A program made the translations under genes and the position numbers. Shown here piece after piece: positions 1 through 9,642 of a stretch of DNA of 9,642 nucleotides (position 1 is its first letter; each line of letters opens with the position of its first letter). Below the pieces are notes generated by a model. It did no database searches. It was given only the letters and a program-made list of their open reading frames with translations, and had not been told where the DNA came from. Source of the stretch: Synergistetes bacterium JGI 0000079-D21 (lineage in GTDB: Bacteria > Synergistota > Synergistia > Synergistales > 79-D21); NCBI GenBank assembly GCA_000402835.1, contig AQRZ01000023.1:1-9642 (forward strand), given 5' to 3'.

Positions 1-95
1 AGATTGCCGGATACGCGACCCAGGCCATGACCCACTTGGATGCAGCAAGCCGAGTGGCTTCGGGAGTCGTAGATGCGGCTCTCGGCATTCGGGCC
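1..95 (+). repeat. Left arm of a perfect 95-bp inverted repeat
   Basis: Bases 1-95 equal the reverse complement of 2067-2161 with no mismatch; position i pairs with position 2162 minus i. Identity stops at 96 (g here, t in the other arm read in the same sense). The repeat may extend left beyond the window edge. Both arms are coding for the same part of a MoeA-PBP domain in the same frame. Confidence 0.97.
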
Positions 96-269
96 GCTGC
101 GGATGCTTTCGGGCTGGACTTCGTGACGATGGCCTGGGAACCCTTCGAGCTGGTCATCCCGGAAAAGTACCTGGAGCATCCCGGGGTAAGGGCGGTTCTG
201 GAGTCAATCCGGGATCCCGAGTGGAGAAGTGGCGTTGAAGCTATGGGAGGATATCGATGGCCGGATTGA
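1..269 (+). CDS. C-terminal end of a MoeA-PBP fusion protein (5' end off the window)
   Basis: This is the last 88 codons of a gene whose frame is open at the left edge; the first complete codon is at position 3 and the stop TGA is at 267-269. The first 31 residues are identical to residues 555-585 of the minus-strand MoeA-PBP protein, so this is the tail of the PBP-like domain found at the end of some MoeA proteins. After position 95 it continues for 57 residues, including a stretch rich in FGLDFV and ELVIPEKYL, typical of how this domain ends (family knowledge). It overlaps moaA by 13 bp (257-269), implying translational coupling. This is the natural C-terminus that the minus-strand copy lacks. 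It may be the real end of that same gene displaced by a fold-back join, not a second gene. An ATG at 27 is internal and not a likely start. Confidence 0.8.
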   Translation, partial: IAGYATQAMTHLDAASRVASGVVDAALGIRAAADAFGLDFVTMAWEPFELVIPEKYLEHPGVRAVLESIRDPEWRSGVEAMGGYRWPD

Positions 270-1249
270 TGGGTTCTTTCAACCGAAGGCTCGATTACGT
301 CAGGCTCTCGGTTACGGATCGCTGCAACTACCGGTGCCGCTACTGCATGCCGGAAGAGGGAGTCGATTGGCTCGACCACGAAAAGATCCTTTCCTACGAG
401 GAAATCCTGGTCCTGTGCCGCCTGCTTCACGAGATGGGAGTCAGGAAAATCCGGGTCACCGGCGGGGAACCCACGGTCAGAAAGGGGCTGCCCGACTTCC
501 TCAGGCGCCTCCATGAAGAAATCCCGGCTCTCCACGTGGCGCTGACGACAAACGGGTCCCTTTTGCATTCAATGGCGGTGGAACTGTCGGCGATCCCCCT
601 CGCAGGCCTGAATGTCAGCCTGGATTCCTTGGACCCTGAGAAGTTCAGGTTTCTGACCCGTTGCGGTTCGTTAGACGATGTCCTGGAAGGAATTCGCGCG
701 TTCAAGGCCAGATCCGACACTCCCCTCAAGATCAACACGGTTCTTATGCGGGGGTTCAACGACGAAGAAATCCCGGCCCTCCTCAAATTTGCCGAATCCT
801 GCGGCGCTGTTCTGAGGCTGATCGAATTCATGCCCCTGGACGAGTCCGTTTGGAGCCGGGATCGGTTCATTCCTGCAGACGACATTCTAAAGTCCCTCCC
901 GGAACCGGAAAAGTGGATACCGGAAACGAAAGCCCGCAGGAGTCCGAACCATGGAATTCCCGTGGGCCCGGCTCGATACCTCGTTCACGCGGAAACGGGG
1001 CAGAGGCTTGGCATCATCGCTGCTGTAGGTCACCACTTTTGCGAAACCTGCAACCGGTTGAGGATAACCGCAACCGGAGAGCTTCGGAGTTGCCTTTTCA
1101 GCCCTGAGGGCGTTTCCTTGAGAGAGGCGCTCCGCGAAGGAGACCTGGAAGCGGTCCGAGGGCTGATCCTTGCCGAAGCGGGAAGAAAGCCGAAATGCTG
1201 GAAGGAAGCTTCCGCCTCGACCCGGCATATGTCCCAGATTGGAGGATGA
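257..1249 (+). CDS. moaA: GTP 3',8-cyclase MoaA
   Basis: MoaA is a radical SAM enzyme that converts GTP to 3',8-cyclo-7,8-dihydro-GTP, the first step of molybdenum cofactor synthesis in the cytoplasm. The 330-residue protein is normal length for the family. It has the N-terminal CxxxCxxC cluster motif (C23, C27, C30, CNYRCRYC), the SAM-binding GGEP at 69-72, and the C-terminal second 4Fe-4S site (C262, C265 in FCETCNRLR, and C279). It ends in the Gly-Gly dipeptide known to be needed for MoaA activity. The ATG at 257 is chosen because GGGAGG at 245-250 lies 6 nt upstream; ATG 269 is less well placed. It overlaps the preceding MoeA-PBP tail by 13 bp and is 3 bp from moaC, so the three are probably cotranscribed and coupled. 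Confidence 0.97.
   Translation: MAGLMGSFNRRLDYVRLSVTDRCNYRCRYCMPEEGVDWLDHEKILSYEEILVLCRLLHEMGVRKIRVTGGEPTVRKGLPDFLRRLHEEIPALHVALTTNGSLLHSMAVELSAIPLAGLNVSLDSLDPEKFRFLTRCGSLDDVLEGIRAFKARSDTPLKINTVLMRGFNDEEIPALLKFAESCGAVLRLIEFMPLDESVWSRDRFIPADDILKSLPEPEKWIPETKARRSPNHGIPVGPARYLVHAETGQRLGIIAAVGHHFCETCNRLRITATGELRSCLFSPEGVSLREALREGDLEAVRGLILAEAGRKPKCWKEASASTRHMSQIGG
1241..1245 (+). promoter_or_regulatory. moaC Shine-Dalgarno site within the last codons of moaA
   Basis: GGAGG lies 7 nt before the moaC ATG at 1253. The same bases form the last two sense codons of moaA (GGA GGA), which encode the functional C-terminal Gly-Gly of MoaA. The site therefore carries two functions and supports translational coupling of moaA and moaC. 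Confidence 0.8.
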
Positions 1250-1252
1250 GGA

Positions 1253-1738
1253 ATGGGAGAGTTGACTCACCTGGATGCGGAAGGGCACCCCGTAATGGTC
1301 GACGTTTCGGGGAAGCCCGAAACCGAAAGGGAAGCGGTAGCGGAAGGTTGGGTTCATCTGCCGGAAAGTGTATACGATGCGATCCTGGAAAATCGGATCC
1401 GGAAGGGAGATGTCCTGAAGATTGCGGAACTCGCCGGAATCCAGGGAGCGAAAAGGACGGCTTCGCTGATCCCCCTGTGCCACGGGATTCGTCTTGACCA
1501 AGCGAGCGTTCGCTGCCACCTTGTCCCGGATCGGAAAGCGATCCGCGTAGAATGTCATGTCAAGGCCCGAGAGGTAACGGGTGTGGAAATGGAAGCCTTG
1601 ACGGGGGTTTCCGTTGCCGCCCTGACCGTATACGACATGTGCAAGGCGCTGGACAAGGGAATCGAAATTAGGAACATCCGCCTCCTCATGAAAAAAGGCG
1701 GCAAAAGCGGCGAGTACAAGGTTTCAGAAGGGGTGTGA
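1253..1738 (+). CDS. moaC: Cyclic pyranopterin monophosphate synthase MoaC
   Basis: MoaC acts after MoaA, converting 3',8-cyclo-7,8-dihydro-GTP to cyclic pyranopterin monophosphate. The 161-residue length is typical. Family hallmarks are all present: MVDVSGK at 15-21, the SLIPLCH block ending at H77, and TGVEMEALTGVSVAALTVYD at 109-128 followed by MCKA. H77, D128 and K131 coincide with the catalytic positions as I recall them for E. coli MoaC. One oddity is Gly at 78, where most MoaC proteins have Pro (LCHP). The start has GGAGG 7 nt upstream. It begins 3 bp after the moaA stop and ends 3 bp before the next gene, so it belongs to the same transcript. Confidence 0.97.
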   Translation: MGELTHLDAEGHPVMVDVSGKPETEREAVAEGWVHLPESVYDAILENRIRKGDVLKIAELAGIQGAKRTASLIPLCHGIRLDQASVRCHLVPDRKAIRVECHVKAREVTGVEMEALTGVSVAALTVYDMCKALDKGIEIRNIRLLMKKGGKSGEYKVSEGV

Positions 1739-1741
1739 AGG

Positions 1742-2066
1742 ATGCGGGTCATCGGGTTTCTCGAGGGGAAGAAATCGGCGGGCGGATTATCGATGATCTA
1801 CCTCCACCTGGGGAGCAGGGGAGATTGCCTGGTGAACGGGAAATCAGCCGAGATTTTTGGTTCCGGCCCAGGTTTCCTGGAAGACCTGGGGGAGGGACAA
1901 TGGCAGATCCTGTTTTCTTCAGATAGTCCAATTCAGGAAGGGCATTTCATCTCCCTCGAAAAGGACGGCCCGGTTCTTCTGGTCGAAGAACCTCTTGAAA
2001 AATGCTTCCGGCTGAAGCCGATCAAGGGAGGATTCGTATCGCTTTCTCAGAAAGCAGCACTTCAAA
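1742..2066 (+). CDS. Small protein after moaC, 3' end lost at a rearrangement junction; faint MOSC resemblance
   Basis: The ATG at 1742 lies 3 bp after the moaC stop and has AGAAGGGG at 1726-1733, 8 nt upstream, so translation from here is likely. The first 108 codons look like real protein. The open frame continues to a stop at 2372-2374, but everything after 2066 is antisense to moeA-PBP and is low-complexity Pro/Ser/Arg-rich, so it is not original. I do not firmly recognise the family. A segment around residues 67-90 (EGHFISLEKDGPVLLVEE then a Cys) resembles the end of MOSC domains, where a conserved Cys follows a hydrophobic strand, and MOSC proteins often sit in molybdenum-cofactor operons. 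That is a weak inference: the usual GDAH-type segment is not seen. The gene is probably truncated by the junction at 2066/2067. Confidence 0.55.
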
Positions 2067-3821
2067 GGCCCGAATGCCGAGAGCCGCATCTACGACTCCC
2101 GAAGCCACTCGGCTTGCTGCATCCAAGTGGGTCATGGCCTGGGTCGCGTATCCGGCAATCTTCGACCTGTCCAAGCCCGCCTCGAGAAGGAACCAGTCCA
2201 GGAGGATCCGAGTCCCGGCTCCCGCTTGACGGTTCACAATCCGGATCCTCTTTTCTGCGAGGTCCTCTATCCTTGAAAGTCCCATGGGATTTCCTTTCGC
2301 CACCAAAAACCCCTGCTCCCGATAATATAGGAGCTTTCGAACCCAGGAATCGCCGTTCGAGAGATCCTCGATAAACGCATCGTTATACCGGCCGGTCTTC
2401 CCGTCCAACAGATGGCAGGCCGCCAGGTGCCCCTCTCCCCGGGCAAGGGCCGCAAGACCACCGAGGCTCCCAACCGAACGGATCGCAAGGTCGGCCCCCT
2501 TTTTCCGAACGGGCGTTACGATCCGGGTAAACGCCGGATCGTCCGACCCTTGGAAAAGGGCCCTACTTGACCAGGGAACCGTTCGTTTGAACCACACGTT
2601 GACCCCGGTCCCTTTCGGACATTCGACCTTTTCCGAGGGCAAGAGGACGTACCCGTCAGCCTCATGCATCGACCCCATGGTCGATGCCCCGGAAGAAAGG
2701 ATCCAGAAGGTTTTTCTCCCTCCCACTTCCACGGCCTTCACCCTCAGCCACTCTTCGGTTCCCGCCGGGGACGAATGGGGCAGCATCATCTCGCATCGTA
2801 ATTCTTCCCGTGCCCGCAGTGCCCGGCGCAAGATCTCTTCCGGTTCCATCCCACCGACCGGCACACCGGACATAGCGAAAGTGGCCGGGGCCACCAGGCT
2901 CCAGGCGGCGACTGCCGCCGACATGGGGAATCCGGGGATTCCGAAGACCAGGGTCTTTTCTATCCTGCCAAAGAGAGCCGGACGCCCCGGTTTCATCCGG
3001 ACCCACCTGAACAGGATTTCACCCTCTGAGGCAATCACGTCGGCTGTGTGATCCCTTTTCCCTTTCGCCGTCCCGGCACCGATCAGGACCAGGTCGTAGC
3101 GCTCCGCCGCCGCCTTCAGCTTTTCCTTGATGAGGTCCGGCGCATCGGGCAAAACGGGGTGAATGTCAAGGTCCAGTCCCCATTCTTTAAAAATCCCCTT
3201 TATTAAGGCGGAATTGGTTTCGGGAACTTTTCCCTTCGGTTCCTCTTCGGTTTCCAACCATTCGCTTACCGGGAAAATCTCGTCTCCGGTCGGGATGAAA
3301 AGGCATCTCGGAAGCCGAAAGACAGGGATCTCTCCGATCCCCGCCCCCAGGAGAAGCGCGATCATGGGAGGGTCAACCCTTTCTCCCCAATGGGCAATGA
3401 CCTGCCCTTTCATGACGTCCTCCCCTACCGGACGGACGTTCGCCCCTGGAGGGAGCGCTTTTGAAATGAGGAGATCGCCGTTCTCCGCCATGGCGGTATC
3501 CTCTACCATCACCACGGAATCGCACCAATCCGGCAAGGGGCCGCCGGTATTCACCCAAAGGAAGCGATCCTGGGGGAGTCGCACAACAGTGGCCGGAGTC
3601 GCACGTCCCGTTTCGGCCGACTTCAGGGCAAAGCCGTCCACGGCGGAAGCGGCATAGTGCGGAACGTTTCGACGTGAAAGGACATCCTCGGCCAGGAGGA
3701 ACCCCAGCCCTTCCTCTGCGGGAATTCGAGCAACCTCCGGAAACCCTGCCTCCCGTACCGCTTCGAGGATGATCTTTCTTGCTTCAGGAAGGCTGACGTG
3801 TTCCTTGCAAGTCCTTACCAT
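2022..3821 (-). CDS. MoeA-type molybdopterin molybdenumtransferase fused to a PBP-like domain; C-terminus replaced at a junction
   Basis: Residues ~8-415 form a MoeA unit: VDGFAL at 61-66, TGDE at 178-181, KPGRP at 277-281 and GIPGFP at 294-299. MoeA proteins insert molybdate (or tungstate) into adenylylated molybdopterin. The usual GGxSxG loop is GAGTAKGKRD here (248-257). Residues ~420-585 form a PBP-like domain with HLAACHLLD at 465-473 and GAGTR at 534-538. Such fusions are known in anaerobic bacteria and archaea; the extra domain may sense or bind oxyanion or cofactor, but its role is not settled. The frame has 599 codons, but the last 14 (586-599) are encoded by antisense of the neighbouring gene and are not native. 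The lost end matches the 57 codons at 96-266, giving an expected 642-residue protein. ATG 3821 has GGAGG (3829-3833) 7 nt upstream and overlaps the upstream moeA stop by 7 bp. Confidence 0.9.
   Translation of the reverse strand: MVRTCKEHVSLPEARKIILEAVREAGFPEVARIPAEEGLGFLLAEDVLSRRNVPHYAASAVDGFALKSAETGRATPATVVRLPQDRFLWVNTGGPLPDWCDSVVMVEDTAMAENGDLLISKALPPGANVRPVGEDVMKGQVIAHWGERVDPPMIALLLGAGIGEIPVFRLPRCLFIPTGDEIFPVSEWLETEEEPKGKVPETNSALIKGIFKEWGLDLDIHPVLPDAPDLIKEKLKAAAERYDLVLIGAGTAKGKRDHTADVIASEGEILFRWVRMKPGRPALFGRIEKTLVFGIPGFPMSAAVAAWSLVAPATFAMSGVPVGGMEPEEILRRALRAREELRCEMMLPHSSPAGTEEWLRVKAVEVGGRKTFWILSSGASTMGSMHEADGYVLLPSEKVECPKGTGVNVWFKRTVPWSSRALFQGSDDPAFTRIVTPVRKKGADLAIRSVGSLGGLAALARGEGHLAACHLLDGKTGRYNDAFIEDLSNGDSWVRKLLYYREQGFLVAKGNPMGLSRIEDLAEKRIRIVNRQAGAGTRILLDWFLLEAGLDRSKIAGYATQAMTHLDAASRVASGVVDAALGIRAFEVLLSEKAIRILP
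2041..2055. repeat. Short perfect hairpin next to the junction
   Basis: GCTTTCT and AGAAAGC flank a single C, giving 7-bp perfect arms. It lies 11 bp from the strand-switch point at 2066/2067. There is no T-run next to it, so a terminator is unlikely. A 7-mer from it (GAAAGCA, 2050-2056) also occurs in antisense sense at 104-110, just past the end of the other repeat arm, so it could have helped template switching. This may be coincidence. Confidence 0.4.
2066..2067. other. Rearrangement or chimera junction (strand switch)
   Basis: Left of this point all genes are on the plus strand; right of it all are on the minus strand. Two coding frames facing each other lose their natural 3' ends here: the small gene after moaC and the MoeA-PBP gene. 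The bases right of the junction are an inverted copy of the window's first 95 bases. No transposase, target-site duplication or recombinase gene is seen. Confidence 0.85.
2067..2161 (-). repeat. Right arm of the perfect 95-bp inverted repeat
   Basis: This is the exact reverse complement of 1-95. It encodes residues 555-585 of the minus-strand MoeA-PBP protein. On its left side the match ends abruptly at a codon boundary, after which the reading frame has only 14 codons to a stop. Confidence 0.97.
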
Positions 3822-5041
3822 TGCAAAACCTCCACTCTCTCTCCCTTCCTGCGCGTTTCCTCGTTTTCCGCAAGGCGCACAAGAGCGTTCGCATTCTTCA
3901 GAACGGAAACGTACCCGGATTTACCCGGCATGGGCTTGGCTTGCCCCCCTGAAAGGAAGGCAGGAACGAATTCTTCCGTACCCGCTTTCCCGAAAAGGTC
4001 ACCGGCCAAAACCGCCTCCGAGGATTTCAGCGGACTTTGAGCCCCTGCCAGTGCCGAAAGCAACGGGAGTAAAAGGGTGATCGCAACGACGGAACAGGAG
4101 AGGGGATGTCCCGGCAGCCCCAAAAGCAGCCTCCTCTCCGGCATACAGCCGGCGATGAGAGCCGGTTTTCCGGGGTTCATGTTGATCCCCCTCACGAGGA
4201 GCCCTGGAGGAGGCAGATTTTCCATGATCTCTGAACAGAAATCCCTGACGCTCACCGAGGAACCCCCGCTCAAAAGAACGATGTCGTTTTCTTCCATGGA
4301 TTCCCGGACCGCTTCTCCAAGCCGGTCCCGGATGTCCGGCACGATCCCGAGGCGTTTTGCCTGGAAACCGTACCGTGCCAAGAGGAATTCCAGGAACCAG
4401 GCATTCGCGTCCCTGATCTTCCCAGGAGGAAGAACAGGCGTTTCGGCGGGAACGATCTCATCCCCCGTCGAGAGGATGCCTATCTTCAGGTCGAGGCGTT
4501 CAACCGTACAGATCCCCAAGGTCGCCAGAATTCCGACATTCCGGTCATCCACGAGATCACCCGCACTCAGGATCACTTCGTTTTGCCGGATTTCCTCCCC
4601 GCGGAAAACGAGATTCTCACCCGACTGGAGAGCCTTTCGAACTTCCAGCCAGGCTCCTGCCTGCACCGTGTCCTCCACCATGACAACCGCATCGGCTCCC
4701 TCGGGAATCATTCCCCCCGTGTGGACGAGAACACACTCCCCTTCCGCGACTCGCTTCTCGGTCTGCTCTCCCATCAGGATCTCCCCGGTGATCCGAAGGA
4801 ACACCGGAGCCGTGTCAGAGGCACCAGCCACATCCTCCGACCTTAAGGCATAACCGTCTCGAGTACTGCGGGTGAAGGGAGGATAATCTACCGGCGACAC
4901 CAGGTTCAAACCGCATCTCTTCCCCATCGCTTCCTGCAGAGGGACGGAGCGGGTTTTCAAGGGCCAGGGAAACCCCAACGCCTCGGCCACGTGTTCAATC
5001 GCTTCTTTTCTCGAGATCAGTTCTTTTGCAAAACCGGACAT
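3815..5041 (-). CDS. moeA: Molybdopterin molybdenumtransferase MoeA
   Basis: MoeA inserts the metal into molybdopterin in the last step of basic molybdenum-cofactor synthesis. The 408-residue protein is the normal single-unit length: MoeA N-terminal domains ~8-170, the molybdopterin-binding fold ~185-325 and a C-terminal domain ~335-408. Seen motifs are DGYA at 62-65, STGDE at 191-195, GGSSVSVRD at 259-267, NPGKP at 289-293 and GLPGHP at 308-313. The loop usually written GEDI is GEEI here (148-151), a conservative change at a metal-site position. ATG 5041 is chosen over a TTG at 5074 because GGAGG (5050-5054) lies 8 nt upstream and the earlier start adds 11 unconserved residues. It begins 29 bp after the SPOR gene and overlaps the second moeA by 7 bp. 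Two adjacent MoeA paralogues suggest divided work, perhaps molybdenum versus tungsten; that is inference. Confidence 0.95.
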   Translation of the reverse strand: MSGFAKELISRKEAIEHVAEALGFPWPLKTRSVPLQEAMGKRCGLNLVSPVDYPPFTRSTRDGYALRSEDVAGASDTAPVFLRITGEILMGEQTEKRVAEGECVLVHTGGMIPEGADAVVMVEDTVQAGAWLEVRKALQSGENLVFRGEEIRQNEVILSAGDLVDDRNVGILATLGICTVERLDLKIGILSTGDEIVPAETPVLPPGKIRDANAWFLEFLLARYGFQAKRLGIVPDIRDRLGEAVRESMEENDIVLLSGGSSVSVRDFCSEIMENLPPPGLLVRGINMNPGKPALIAGCMPERRLLLGLPGHPLSCSVVAITLLLPLLSALAGAQSPLKSSEAVLAGDLFGKAGTEEFVPAFLSGGQAKPMPGKSGYVSVLKNANALVRLAENEETRRKGERVEVLQW

Positions 5042-5049
5042 CCTAAGAA

Positions 5050-5054
5050 CCTCC
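5050..5054 (-). promoter_or_regulatory. Shine-Dalgarno site that sets the moeA start
   Basis: On the minus strand this reads GGAGG, 8 nt before the ATG at 5041. The alternative TTG at 5074 lies upstream of it, so the site favours the shorter 408-residue protein. Confidence 0.75.
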
Positions 5055-5070
5055 ACCCGCCTTGTGTGTT

Positions 5071-5829
5071 TCAACGAGTCCTTACGATCAGAACGGGATA
5101 GCCTTTATCGCCCAGCTCTTTCGCTAGCTTTTCGGCCGCCAGACGCTCATTCCCGGCCTGGACTACGACTTTCGTCAACGGTGTTTCCCCGTTTGCCGCC
5201 TCGATCGTACCAACCTTGAAGCCTTCCTGCCGAAGCTTCTTGACCAGGTTTTCCGCATTCCCGCGTTCCTTGAAGGCTCCGACCTGCACGCCCCAGGTTT
5301 CTTTTCCGGCCGCTCCCGTTCCTGTTTGGGTGCCCAGTTTCTCGGTTTCAGTCTTGGCCGGCGACGTTTGCGGTTCCGACACGGCAGCCGGTTTTCCTCC
5401 GGTTTTGACGGCGACCGGTTTGACAACCGGTTTTTCCTGAGCTGGCTTCGGCTTCGAAGTCGATTCCGATTTCGGCAACGGACTCCCTTCCGGAACTGCC
5501 ACCACCGTTTCTTCCGCTTCTCCGCTTAAGGGAGCACGGCTCCCTTCCTGAACCGTCACGGAACCGCTTTCAACTGTCTGTTCCGCAACAATCGGAGGAG
5601 TTTCGACCTTGGCAGACGGGAAGAAGAAAAGGCGGATTCCGAGAACAAGAACTCCGACAGCCACGAGACCTACAATTGGAAGCATGAAGTGGCCGAAACC
5701 GAAACTCGTTCGGCGGGATCGGCTCCTGCGGTTCCTTCGCGAAGGTAGACGCCTCTGCGGACGCGGGGGCACCCCCTCGGGGTTCGCCTCGTCATCCCCC
5801 AATTCCCATTCTTCGGATTCAGGAAGCAT
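5071..5829 (-). CDS. SPOR-domain membrane protein, probably binding septal peptidoglycan
   Basis: The 252-residue protein has an acidic N-terminus (1-20), a strongly basic stretch (RRNRRSRSRR at 31-40) and one transmembrane segment at about 47-70 (LPIVGLVAVGVLVLGI). A low-complexity linker rich in Lys, Pro, Glu, Thr and Val follows (~75-178), then a C-terminal SPOR domain (~179-252, WGVQVGAFKERGNAENLVKKL). The basic stretch before the helix predicts a cytoplasmic N-terminus and an SPOR domain outside the inner membrane. SPOR domains bind denuded glycan strands at the division site, and the nearby ftsA and ftsZ fit a septal role. ATG 5829 is preferred to a TTG at 5859 because GGGGGG (5837-5842) lies 7 nt upstream. 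It overlaps the end of the radical SAM gene by 11 bp. It is not recognisable as FtsN or DedD in particular. Confidence 0.9.
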   Translation of the reverse strand: MLPESEEWELGDDEANPEGVPPRPQRRLPSRRNRRSRSRRTSFGFGHFMLPIVGLVAVGVLVLGIRLFFFPSAKVETPPIVAEQTVESGSVTVQEGSRAPLSGEAEETVVAVPEGSPLPKSESTSKPKPAQEKPVVKPVAVKTGGKPAAVSEPQTSPAKTETEKLGTQTGTGAAGKETWGVQVGAFKERGNAENLVKKLRQEGFKVGTIEAANGETPLTKVVVQAGNERLAAEKLAKELGDKGYPVLIVRTR

Positions 5830-7324
5830 TGGTTTTCCCCCCTTTTCTTTTTTCAACAAGGGTTTCCATCAAATCCAGGATTTCAGGGCCGCCCCAGGAG
5901 AGTCGATATTCCAACTCGGCTTCCCGCAGGCTCGAAAATCGGACATCGCAGCTCCTGCCCAATTTTCCCGAGATCGCGGATTTCAAGATGCGACACCGAC
6001 TCTCTGCCTCCGCGGTTCCGACGAAGGACTGGGTTTCCCATGGCGTTCCCGGCTTGGGAACAAAGACGTTCACGGAAAGCGAAACCGCAAGGCGCAATTC
6101 TTTCCGGATCGATTCCGCAAGAGTGGCGATCGCAATGAGATCCTCTTCCGTTTCTGTCGGTAACCCTACCATGAAGTAGAGTTTCACTTTTCGTATCCCT
6201 TCGCTGGACGCCATTTCAAGCTTGTCGAGAATCTGCATGTTTGTGAAGGCTTTTCCGCACCGCAACCGCAACCGGTCCGACCCCGCTTCCGGTGCGATGG
6301 TGAGGCTTTCTCGCCGCGAACCCCTCAGTGCTTTTACCATCCTCCTCGTCAGGTTGTCGATCCTCAGGGAGGCAAACGAAACCCCTTTCTTCAGCCTTTC
6401 AAGGGTATCAAGCAACGGTTCCAGCCCCGGATAATCCCCCGCTTCCGGGGTAACTAGCCCCACCTGGGTAAAAGGAACCACCGGGGCAAGACGTTCAACG
6501 GTTTCAATTACCGTTTCGACCGGCCTCTGCCTGAGGGGCGAAAAGCAGGAAGGCAAAACGCAATAGGGGCACCCCCGAGCACACCCTCTTTGCAGCTCAA
6601 GGAGAAGGGTCCTTCCAAAGACCGAGTTCGGAGAAATCCAGATGCCGTGTCCCAGGGTTTGTTGGCAGGGCGTCTTTGCGACTCGTTTTGTCCCGTTTTT
6701 GAGAAACTCAAGCGCCCTCTCCTCACCCAAGGCCGGAACCAGGATGGAAGGGTGCTCGTCTAGGGCTTCCAGGATCGAATCTCGGCCGTCCTCTCCATGA
6801 GGTTGGCCCCGGAAACAGCCGACAAGATGGGGAATAACAGGCTCCCCATCCCCGAGCACGATAAAATCGGCAACGGCGAGCAACATCGCCGGGTTTATCG
6901 AAGTAAAAGCCCCCGCCGCTCCGATCAGCGGGAACCTTCCTTGCTTTCGCTCTTTTGCCCTTGGCGGGATTCCAGCCTTGGCCAGTATTTCAAGAAAGTT
7001 CAGGGCATCCGGCTCATAGGCGAGACTCGCCGTGATGATAGGAAAGTCCTGCAGGGGACGGCGGCTCTCCAAGGAAAGGTTGAGGATCGGCGAAAGAAAA
7101 AAACGCTCTACGCCAACCCCCAACTTTTTTAAATGGTAAAACGCGTAATGAAAGCCGAGGTTCGCAATCCCCGTTCCGTAATCCGAAGGAAAAACCAGAG
7201 CCCAGGAGGGATCGCCCCCCCGCGGCAGCGGAAGCACATTGACCTCGTTTTGGGTGACGGGTTCCCAATCTCTGCCGAACCGGGCAGCTTCACGATAGGG
7301 AGGAAGCCGCCTATATCCCTTCAA
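5819..7324 (-). CDS. Radical SAM protein with B12-binding-like N-terminal region, function unknown
   Basis: This is a 501-residue protein. Residues ~40-200 look like the Rossmann-type N-terminal region of B12-binding radical SAM proteins (FPSDYGTGIANLG at 45-57, VLGDGEP at 156-162), but I see no clear cobalamin-binding DxHxxG motif. Residues ~235-460 are a radical SAM core with CxxxCxxC at C248, C252 and C255 (CARGCPYC), then TIAPEAGSDRLR and YFMVGLPTETEEDL, features of the YgiQ-like and TIGR03960-like families. The substrate is unknown; the family may modify RNA, protein or a small molecule. No ATG is available near the 5' end. TTG 7324 is the best start, with a GGAGGGGGG run (7335-7343) ending 10 nt upstream. 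It begins 25 bp after the ftsZ stop, so it is probably cotranscribed with the division genes. Confidence 0.85.
   Translation of the reverse strand: MKGYRRLPPYREAARFGRDWEPVTQNEVNVLPLPRGGDPSWALVFPSDYGTGIANLGFHYAFYHLKKLGVGVERFFLSPILNLSLESRRPLQDFPIITASLAYEPDALNFLEILAKAGIPPRAKERKQGRFPLIGAAGAFTSINPAMLLAVADFIVLGDGEPVIPHLVGCFRGQPHGEDGRDSILEALDEHPSILVPALGEERALEFLKNGTKRVAKTPCQQTLGHGIWISPNSVFGRTLLLELQRGCARGCPYCVLPSCFSPLRQRPVETVIETVERLAPVVPFTQVGLVTPEAGDYPGLEPLLDTLERLKKGVSFASLRIDNLTRRMVKALRGSRRESLTIAPEAGSDRLRLRCGKAFTNMQILDKLEMASSEGIRKVKLYFMVGLPTETEEDLIAIATLAESIRKELRLAVSLSVNVFVPKPGTPWETQSFVGTAEAESRCRILKSAISGKLGRSCDVRFSSLREAELEYRLSWGGPEILDLMETLVEKRKGGKTNAS
5837..5842 (-). promoter_or_regulatory. Shine-Dalgarno site that sets the SPOR gene start
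   Basis: On the minus strand this is GGGGGG followed by 7 nt and ATG at 5829. It lies inside the 3' end of the radical SAM gene and favours the ATG over the upstream TTG at 5859. Confidence 0.65.
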
Positions 7325-7334
7325 ACCGCCGGCG

Positions 7335-7343
7335 CCCCCCTCC
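7335..7343 (-). promoter_or_regulatory. Shine-Dalgarno run before the TTG start of the radical SAM gene
   Basis: On the minus strand this reads GGAGGGGGG, ending 10 nt before TTG 7324. It lies in the 25-bp gap after ftsZ and supports the non-ATG start, because no in-frame ATG or GTG lies closer. Confidence 0.55.
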
Positions 7344-7349
7344 GACCGG

Positions 7350-8540
7350 TCAGTCTCCAGCCTTCCGCCGTCGGATAACGGAAGGGATATCCAGGTGGTT
7401 CGTCGGCACTCCGCTGATCTTGAAAAGGTCCTCTTCCTGTGAAGAAGACCGCACCTCGGCCTCTTCGAGATCGATCCGGTTCTTCTTGACTCGGGGGGTT
7501 GCCGCCTGAACCGGTTGAGGTGTTGCAGTCCTGCGGACAGTCTCGATCTTTCGGGTTTGGACAGGAACGACAGCCTGTTCCGAAAAACCGGTCGCGATGA
7601 CCGTTATCTGTATCTTCTCCCCCATCGAAGGATCGACCACGTTGCCCCAGATGATTGTCGCATCCTCGTCCGCTGCCTCGGTAATCACGTTGGCAGCCTG
7701 GTTGATCTCGTGGATCCCCAGGCTCGGACCTCCCGTCACGTTGAACAGGACTCCCTTTGCTCCGGCCATCTGAGTTTCCATCAAGGGGCTATTGATTGCT
7801 GCCCTCGCCGCGATTTCTGCCCTACTCTCCCCTTCCGCCTCGCCGATCCCCATGATCGCTGAACCCGCATTGCTCATGACCGTACGGACATCGGCAAAGT
7901 CCACGTTCACCAGGCCGGGGCGGAAAATCAGGTCGGTTACGCCCTGCACGGCCTGCCTCAAAACGTCATCCGCCAACCGGAAGGCATCGCAAAGGGCCGT
8001 TTTGCAATCGGAAATCTCCAGCAGCTTGTCATTGGGAATGACGATCAGGGCGTCTACCTTGTCTTTCAGGTTTTCGATCCCGGCTTTCGCCTGCAAGAGC
8101 CGTTTCTTGCCCTCGAAGGAGAAGGGGCGGGTGACGACCGCAACGACAAGAACCCCCATTTCCTTCGCAACTTCCGCGATGACCGGGGTCGACCCCGTTC
8201 CGGTTCCGCCTCCCATTCCGGCCGTCAGAAAAACCATATCGGTTCCCTCGAGGATTTGGCGAATCTCTTCCCTGGATTCCTTCGCAGCCTTCATCCCGAC
8301 CTCTGGATCCGCCCCCGCTCCGAGGCCTCGGGTCAATTCCTTCCCCAGGACGATCCGTACATCCGCTTCCGAGGTCTGAAGGTGTGCCATGTCCGTATTG
8401 GCTCCAACGAACTCCACGCCGACAAGCCCGCTACGAGCGATATGGTTCAGCGCGTTGTTTCCGCCACCGCCGATTCCCATCACCTTGATGACTTCCCTGA
8501 ATGGACGGCTCGCTTTCTCAATTTCAAAAATGTCGGCCAT
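7350..8540 (-). CDS. ftsZ: Cell division protein FtsZ
   Basis: FtsZ is the tubulin-like GTPase that polymerises into the division ring at midcell. The 396-residue length is usual. It shows the GTP-binding glycine loop GIGGGGNNA at 22-30, the tubulin signature GGGTGTG at 110-116, and the T7 synergy loop NVDFADVR at 212-219, which completes GTP hydrolysis in the next subunit. A variable linker (~324-380) follows, then the C-terminal conserved peptide [11 protein letters not shown] at 383-393, which binds FtsA and other partners. ATG 8540 has AGGAGG (8549-8554) 8 nt upstream. It starts 30 bp after the ftsA stop, the classic ftsA-ftsZ order at the end of a division gene cluster. No key residue appears missing. 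Confidence 0.98.
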
Positions 8541-8570
8541 GCCGTTCGCCTCCTGCAGGATCCAGAATGG

Positions 8571-9642
8571 TCAAAACAAATCCTTCACGGATTTCCGGAT
8601 ATTTTCCATCACGGCTTTGAGTGCCCCGTTCCCGGCTCGTTTCTTTCCGTTCCCGGCATTGATGCCTCCCCTGCCCGTACGCCTGATCCGGCCTCCTGAA
8701 ACGGATCCTTCAAGAGGGAGGTCCGATTCGATGTACCGGTAGGGATTCCGCTCCTTCTCCAGGACGTACCTAATGATCCCGGCTCCACTGGCGTATTCTT
8801 CGCTGTCCATACCGGGAGGCATACGGCCGGCGTCAAGGGGCCCGGCAACCCGAACGGGCAAGTCGAGCAGTCTCGACACGTAGGCATCCAGACCGGCCAA
8901 CCTTGAAACTCCTCCGGTCAGAACAATTCCACCCGGCAGCATGGAAACACCGGATTCCTTCAGTTCGTTTTCCACCAGGGAGGAAAAGAGTTCGTCAAGC
9001 CGGCAGGCGATGACCTCAACCACTTCACGGGTGCTGAAGGACAGGATCTTCCCCATGCTTTCGATTTCGATCTTTTCGTTTTGCCCGAAGCTTTCCGGTG
9101 AAAGGGAAACGCTTTTTTTCAGGACATCTGCGCGGCTGATCGGAATCCTCAGCACACAGGCCAGATCGTTGGTGATATGGTCGCCTCCCACAGGAATGAC
9201 AGAAAGCCTCCTTGGCCTTCCCTCGGAAAAAACCGAGACCCCCGTAGTCCCCCCGCCCAAATCGACAACAGCGACCCCTGCCATGGCTTCTTCGTTGGAA
9301 AGGCATCCCAGGGAACTTGCAAGGGGCTTCATGACCAGCCCGGTGACATCCAGCCCGGCCTTGCTCACGCAGTTCACGACATTCTGGATCACGGCCGTCG
9401 GAACGATGATCGACTGGAGTTCCACCTCAAGCCTGACTCCCGTCATGTCCAAGGGGTCGTCGATCCCAGGATGCCCATCCAGTGTATATTCGACAGGGAT
9501 CGTGTGGAGGATGCAGCGATTCAAAGGAACGGCGATCTCCGATTGCGCAGCCTCGATGATTCGGTCTACGTCTTCGATCATCACTTGTCTAGCGGAACGA
9601 CCGAGAGAGATCATTCCCCGCGTTCGAACGCTCGCCGATTCT
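8571..9642 (-). CDS. ftsA: Cell division protein FtsA (N-terminus off the window)
   Basis: FtsA is an actin-like ATPase that tethers FtsZ filaments to the inner membrane and recruits later division proteins. The frame is open at the right edge; 356 residues are visible from the first full codon at 9641, leaving roughly 85-95 residues missing by comparison with E. coli FtsA. Seen features are the HTIPVEY and DMTGVRLEVE strands of the 1C and 2A domains, the second phosphate-binding loop VVDLGGGTTGVSVF, and the adenosine-binding motif GIVLTGG. The C-terminal helix (ALKAVMENIRKSVKDLF) is amphipathic, the usual membrane-targeting sequence. An ATG at 9614 is internal, because conserved-looking sequence continues upstream of it. 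The gene is 30 bp upstream of ftsZ and probably cotranscribed. Confidence 0.97.
   Translation of the reverse strand, partial: ESASVRTRGMISLGRSARQVMIEDVDRIIEAAQSEIAVPLNRCILHTIPVEYTLDGHPGIDDPLDMTGVRLEVELQSIIVPTAVIQNVVNCVSKAGLDVTGLVMKPLASSLGCLSNEEAMAGVAVVDLGGGTTGVSVFSEGRPRRLSVIPVGGDHITNDLACVLRIPISRADVLKKSVSLSPESFGQNEKIEIESMGKILSFSTREVVEVIACRLDELFSSLVENELKESGVSMLPGGIVLTGGVSRLAGLDAYVSRLLDLPVRVAGPLDAGRMPPGMDSEEYASGAGIIRYVLEKERNPYRYIESDLPLEGSVSGGRIRRTGRGGINAGNGKKRAGNGALKAVMENIRKSVKDLF

What the first reader, a model, noticed from the sequence alone, without database searches (positions are those of the whole stretch)
1..2161. Perfect 95-bp inverted repeat bracketing a 1,971-bp loop that holds moaA and moaC
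Bases 1-95 equal the reverse complement of 2067-2161 without mismatch, and the repeat touches the window edge, so it could be longer. Both arms are coding for the same protein stretch, so this is a recent or artificial duplication, not a diverged paralogue. It encloses the rest of a MoeA-PBP gene, moaA, moaC and a truncated ORF. A fold-back chimera would look like this: one arm plus the loop, with the second arm collapsed to an overlap at the contig end. A real inverted duplication would look the same within this window.
Basis: partly seen in the sequence, partly recalled or inferred. Interest (0 to 1): 0.75.

Follow-up and report, generated by a model that had tools for sequence, protein, structure and literature searches.

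The report
Fold-back assembly chimera in molybdenum operon
The perfect inverted repeat is really in the letters of this sequence, but it is almost certainly a laboratory or assembly artefact: an ordinary, one-directional molybdenum-cofactor operon was folded back on itself, so it is not a biological feature.

Summary
The inner junction (2066/2067) breaks two genes: a MoeA-PBP fusion (2022-3821, minus) loses its last 57 residues, and a MogA/MoaB-type fusion gene (from 1742, plus) loses its MogA-type domain. Unbroken versions exist: a 642-aa protein identical to both MoeA-PBP pieces and a 291-aa protein 106/108 identical to the truncated ORF that runs on into the MogA domain. In 29 of 29 compared loci (28 distinct) all matched genes lie on one strand. 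In four of five family genomes the window's left and right parts map to opposite strands of one stretch and overlap by 74-92 bases, all inside the arm. GGCC is shared at the junction. This fits published amplification chimeras (PMC1855051). A simulation shows that such a fold-back can give a contig-start inverted repeat of exactly the assembler's k; 95 is a k in use. No reads or source record were available, so position 1 as contig end, k and amplification are inferred. Verdict: artefact, not a duplication.

The parts
1..95 (+). Left arm: codons 555-585 of moeA-PBP (plus two bases of codon 554) in the operon sense; if position 1 is the contig end, it is the shared k-mer of the assembly graph
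   Evidence: 95/95 complementary to 2067-2161; residues placed on the intact protein
3..269 (+). True C-terminal end of the MoeA-PBP fusion (PBP_like domain), 88 aa
   Evidence: Identical to residues 555-642 of P0001; Pfam PF12727
257..1249 (+). moaA, GTP 3',8-cyclase, intact
   Evidence: TIGR02666 above cut-off; Pfam
1253..1738 (+). moaC, cyclic pyranopterin monophosphate synthase, intact
   Evidence: TIGR00581 above cut-off; Pfam
1742..2066 (+). First 108 codons of a MogA/MoaB-type fusion gene, cut at the junction; the ORF runs on to 2374 only as antisense of moeA-PBP
   Evidence: P0123: 106/108 identical, then a MogA-type domain; 277-280 aa read from the aligned start in five family genomes, 274 in L028
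2067..2070 (.). GGCC at the chimeric junction: shared by the arm and by the natural continuation of the ORF in five of six relatives inspected (AGGCC; the more distant L028 reads AAACC)
2067..2161 (-). Right arm: the same moeA-PBP codons on the minus strand; the natural continuation of the operon from here is position 96 onwards
2022..3821 (-). moeA-PBP ORF as read in the contig: residues 1-585 genuine, last 14 residues are antisense of the ORF at 1742
3815..9642 (-). Upstream, undisturbed part in the same transcription direction: moeA paralogue, SPOR-domain protein, radical SAM protein, ftsZ, ftsA (cut by the window end)
   Evidence: Pfam; colinear in relatives

Best explanation
An ordinary Synergistota operon (ftsA-ftsZ-radical SAM-SPOR-moeA-moeA-PBP-moaA-moaC-mogA fusion, all in one direction) was turned into a hairpin-like chimera. 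Inferred mechanism: during phi29 multiple displacement amplification the operon-sense strand was copied to about 2066-2070, its 3' end (...AAAGGCC) came loose and re-primed on the GGCC at 92-95 within moeA-PBP, about 1.97 kb upstream, and then copied back towards ftsA. A de Bruijn assembler then put out the loop plus the return strand. Because the way into the loop is ambiguous, the contig starts at the shared k-mer, which leaves an inverted repeat exactly k = 95 long at the contig start. Shown: the repeat, both broken genes, intact versions elsewhere, colinear relatives, the shared GGCC (from relatives' DNA), and the k-length outcome in a simulation. Inferred: that phi29 amplification made the molecule, that position 1 is the contig end, and that k was 95.
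For: Intact 642-aa MoeA-PBP, identical to the contig's residues 1-585 and to the plus-strand piece 555-642. Intact 291-aa MogA fusion, 106/108 identical to the truncated ORF. Best hits of all matched window genes on one strand in 29 of 29 loci, 28 distinct. Window 6-2070 and 2068-9641 map to G004:C82:8683-10747 (-) and 10659-18229 (+), overlapping by 89 bases inside the arm; the same geometry in G001, G003 and G005, with overlaps of 91, 74 and 92 bases; one arm match each in L001, L091, L092, L094. GGCC shared at the junction in five of six relatives. Lasken and Stockwell (PMC1855051; abstract, Results section and passages seen): 406 of 475 MDA chimeras inverted, 337 of these under 10 kb apart, complementarity in 93.5% of inverted chimeras under 10 kb. 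PMC4060946 (passages): wrongly oriented read pairs are increased in whole-genome-amplified libraries. Simulated fold-back gives a prefix inverted repeat of exactly k for k = 55, 77, 95 and 127. SPAdes with k 25,55,95 is in use for single cells (PMC11253033, passage) and for isolates (PMC7082457, passage).
Against: No reads, coverage or source record were available, so the chimera is shown by comparison, not by mapping. The source of the DNA (single cell, amplified or bulk) is unknown. P0001 has '-' for its source, which the tool prints for proteins that the window itself encodes; if it comes from the window's own record running on to the left of position 1, the arm would be longer than 95, the k = 95 reading would fall, and P0001 would not be independent evidence (P0123 and the relatives would be). 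P0123 differs at 2 of 108 residues, so it is not the same strain, and its DNA was not seen. The single-cell pipeline of PMC11253033 trims 200 bp from contig ends, which would remove a 95-bp terminal arm. k 25,55,95 is also used for isolates. The simulation was given only the fold-back molecule, not the natural continuation beside it. A 4-nt shared palindrome is weak alone, and L028 does not have it. In the fifth family genome (G002) the second half of moeA-PBP is too diverged to test the arm.
Confidence: 0.65

Rival explanations
1. The same fold-back chimera, but made without phi29 amplification or without the k-length contig end: ligation of two fragments during library making, a hairpin long read, a pure assembler misjoin, or a longer fold-back of which the window is a slice.
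For: All the comparative evidence fits any fold-back chimera. GGCC is a palindrome, so blunt ligation at such a site would look the same. k 25,55,95 is not specific to single cells.
Against: Inverted orientation within 2 kb plus short homology is the commonest class of displacement-amplification chimera (PMC1855051); random ligation would mostly join unrelated places (inference).
Confidence: 0.29
2. A genuine inverted duplication in this organism's chromosome: a second, reversed copy of at least part of moeA-PBP follows the moaA-moaC segment.
For: Within the window alone it would look identical. The masked source of P0001 does not exclude a record that runs on to the left.
Against: It would break the MogA fusion and one moeA-PBP copy, while a close relative keeps the fusion whole. 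One arm copy was found in each of four family genomes, and none of 29 compared loci has such an arrangement. Zero mismatches require it to be very recent.
Confidence: 0.04
3. An invertible segment: recombination between the 95-bp arms flips moaA-moaC and switches the end of moeA-PBP on and off.
For: Flipping 96-2066 in the window would place the true C-terminus behind the contig's moeA-PBP, and the intact protein is on record.
Against: In P0123 the MogA fusion continues through the site where the window's second arm begins. No second arm was found in the fetched family stretches. No recombinase among the Pfam hits of the ten window proteins scanned.
Confidence: 0.02

Closest known systems
Inverted chimeras of multiple displacement amplification (Lasken and Stockwell 2007, PMC1855051)
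   Same: Two segments from the same neighbourhood (<10 kb) joined in inverted orientation, with a few complementary bases at the junction
   Different: Those were 454 reads from one amplified E. coli cell; here it is an assembled sequence, and amplification is not documented
Contig-end overlaps of length k in de Bruijn assemblies
   Same: Terminal exact repeat of fixed length; reproduced as an inverted repeat of length k in simulation
   Different: The usual form is a direct terminal repeat on circular contigs (recalled); here it is inverted because of the fold-back
Molybdenum-cofactor operon next to ftsA-ftsZ in the family relative L091 (G004)
   Same: The same genes at about 81% DNA identity over both window halves
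   Different: One direction throughout, arm found once, both broken genes intact

Membership tests
MDA-type inverted chimera | Two segments joined in inverted orientation relative to the genome | tested here: met
   Opposite-strand mapping to one stretch in G001, G003, G004, G005; relatives, not the organism's own genome
MDA-type inverted chimera | Segments close together in the genome (<10 kb) | tested here: met
   About 1.97 kb apart
MDA-type inverted chimera | Short complementarity (2-21 nt) at the junction | tested here: met
   GGCC, judged from relatives' DNA at the orthologous site: AGGCC in five of six, AAACC in L028; the organism's own uninterrupted DNA was not seen
MDA-type inverted chimera | DNA was amplified with phi29 polymerase | not testable with these tools
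   No source record held
de Bruijn contig-end repeat | Repeat length equals the assembler's final k | tested here: inconclusive
   Simulation gives exactly k; the window's own assembler and k are unknown; k = 95 is in use elsewhere
de Bruijn contig-end repeat | One arm lies at a contig end | not testable with these tools
   Arm touches the window edge; contig end not verifiable
Genuine inverted duplication | Second copy present in the organism's own genome | not testable with these tools
   Own genome not held; in kin one arm copy was found in each of four family genomes
Invertible DNA segment | An arm on each side of the segment in the uninverted form | tested here: not met
   Only one arm match in each alignable family stretch; P0123 continues through the site. 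Tested in relatives only
Invertible DNA segment | Nearby site-specific recombinase | tested here: not met
   None among the Pfam hits of the ten window proteins; sequence left of position 1 unknown

The most novel reading that the evidence does not exclude
A phase-variable molybdenum-cofactor operon: recombination between 95-bp arms flips moaA-moaC and truncates a MoeA-PBP fusion and a MogA fusion together in part of the population.
Probability: 0.02. Interest if true: 0.6.

Novelty: not a real feature. Interest (0 to 1): 0.06.

Why it matters
It shows that a perfect inverted repeat at a sequence edge, of a length equal to a plausible assembler k, can be diagnosed by comparison: one gene split over both arms, an intact version elsewhere, and colinear relatives. 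Annotating this sequence as it stands would report a false truncated MoeA-PBP, a false ORF tail at 2067-2374 and a false change of gene direction.

Tried and rejected
Own genome: not held. The first genome-contig scan, with the broken protein, found no relative; the profile scan kept the best 80 loci of a capped list. A 43-base piece of the left arm had no exact match in viral contigs. Paper searches for the k = 95 setting: 96 papers held at least three of the four terms; none of the ten listed held the phrase; none; one search listed PMC11253033 and PMC7082457, whose passages give k 25,55,95. A search on contig-end inverted repeats listed 10 of 23 papers, none of which I opened. Passages of PMC8787282 state no k; those of PMC6511391 give k up to 127. 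From the listing I opened PMC1855051 and PMC4060946. Rough background: 0 of 190 ends of the 95 loci held have their terminal 30-mer repeated elsewhere in the same locus; many of these ends are not contig ends, so the control is weak. One search gave wrong residue numbers because it read gapped alignment rows; one search repeated it on ungapped proteins, and only one search is used. In the alignment MAFFT sets the 14 antisense residues against the relatives' FELV..PEK stretch by a few chance identities. Rejected: real duplication and invertible segment (see rivals); chance repeat (95/95).

Full report
Observation. The window holds a perfect inverted repeat, 1-95 against 2067-2161, with 1,971 nt between the arms. 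A script confirmed 95 of 95 and showed that the sequences part at the first inner base. The other 12 inverted pairs listed are 20-37 nt and 72-88% complementary, so this is not chance.

What the arms are. Both arms code for residues 555-585 of a MoeA protein fused to a periplasmic-binding-protein-like domain. The ORF at 2022-3821 (minus) has 599 residues: 1-585 are identical to the intact protein P0001 and the last 14 are antisense of the ORF at 1742; the real C-terminus, residues 555-642, lies on the plus strand at 3-269. P0001 (642 aa) spans the join; its cluster sits on 10 contigs, the longest 104,722 bases (687 proteins found, best 120 listed). Its source field is '-', which the tool prints for proteins that the window itself encodes, so I cannot exclude that it comes from the window's own record if that runs on to the left. 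The plus-strand ORF at 1742 is likewise broken at 2066. P0123, 291 aa on a 60,865-base contig, matches its first 108 residues at 106/108 and then continues into a MogA/MoaB-type domain. So the junction breaks two genes, and both exist unbroken on record, the second in a close but not identical strain.

Relatives. The profile scan of genome contigs returned 80 loci from a capped list. L054 and L095 lie on the same contig, so 29 loci are 28 distinct stretches. In 29 of 29 the best hits of all matched genes lie on one strand. In 19 of 29 both parts of moeA-PBP and moaA were matched, with the moaA match starting between 9 bases before and 18 bases after the end of the MoeA-PBP match; of the other ten, eight have no moaA match (L020 is also cut within moeA-PBP) and two (L054, L095) no match to the C-terminal PBP part. 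None shows the window's inverted order. Five genomes are held for the family (searched the same five). In four (G001, G003, G004, G005) the window's left and right parts map to opposite strands of one stretch and overlap by 91, 74, 89 and 92 bases, all within the arm; in G004 they are C82:8683-10747 (-) and C82:10659-18229 (+). In G002 the second half of moeA-PBP is diverged and could not be tested, but moaA, moaC and the MogA fusion lie on the same strand as ftsA-ftsZ. One arm match was found in each of L001, L091, L092 and L094, and only a 17-base chance-level match in L095.

Junction. At the orthologous place five of six relatives inspected (L091, L092, L094, L095, L001) read AGGCC; the most distant, L028, reads AAACC. 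The window reads AGGCCC and then follows the arm, whose inner end is GGCC (92-95). So four bases are shared between the natural continuation of the ORF and the place of re-entry. This is judged from relatives' DNA; the organism's own uninterrupted DNA was not seen.

Mechanism. Lasken and Stockwell (PMC1855051; abstract, Results section and passages seen) analysed 475 chimeras from an amplified E. coli cell: 406 were inverted, 337 of these joined places less than 10 kb apart, and complementarity of at least 2 bases was found in 93.5% of inverted chimeras under 10 kb. The window's junction (inverted, 1.97 kb, 4 nt) falls in the commonest class. They argue that hairpin self-priming and template switching, which reach only upstream templates, are not the main routes; the present junction is of the upstream kind, so for this single case those routes stay open. 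A simulation with the relative L091, given only the fold-back molecule, showed that a de Bruijn graph yields a contig that starts with an inverted repeat of exactly k bases, for k = 55, 77, 95 and 127. For k = 95 and a loop of 1,966 the loop unitig was 2,156 bases, against 2,161 for the window's loop of 1,971. SPAdes with k 25,55,95 is used for single cells (PMC11253033, passage; that pipeline trims 200 bp from contig ends, so it would not leave this arm) and for isolates (PMC7082457, passage). So k = 95 is a real setting but does not point to single cells. That position 1 is a contig end, that k was 95 and that the DNA was amplified remain inferences.

Rivals. A real inverted duplication would have to be very recent and break a conserved gene, and it was seen in none of the loci compared; an invertible segment would need a second arm in the uninverted form, which was not found in relatives. 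Neither is strictly excluded without reads or the source record.

Verdict. Observation confirmed; the chimera reading is supported; the feature is an artefact.

Noticed in passing
3815-9642: ftsZ and a moeA paralogue lie on the same stretch in 17 of 29 compared loci (16 distinct), with moeA-PBP behind. MoeA-like 'Glp' proteins are named as divisome proteins in NCBIfam (NF045515; the window's moeA scores 219 bits, below the cut-off of 475), so a cell-division link of this MoeA may deserve a look.
   Followed up: no
1742-2066 and L091:3179-4012: The gene after moaC is a fusion: an N-terminal part of about 110 residues and a MogA/MoaB-type domain (PF00994 listed for its relatives, several named Synergistaceae or Aminobacterium). 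The broken window ORF has no Pfam match; the N-terminal part was not scanned alone.
   Followed up: partly
L054 / L095 (G002): In this relative the MoeA-PBP gene aligns only over residues 1-424 at about 41%, as if the PBP part were lost or replaced, though the neighbouring genes are 56-94% identical.
   Followed up: no
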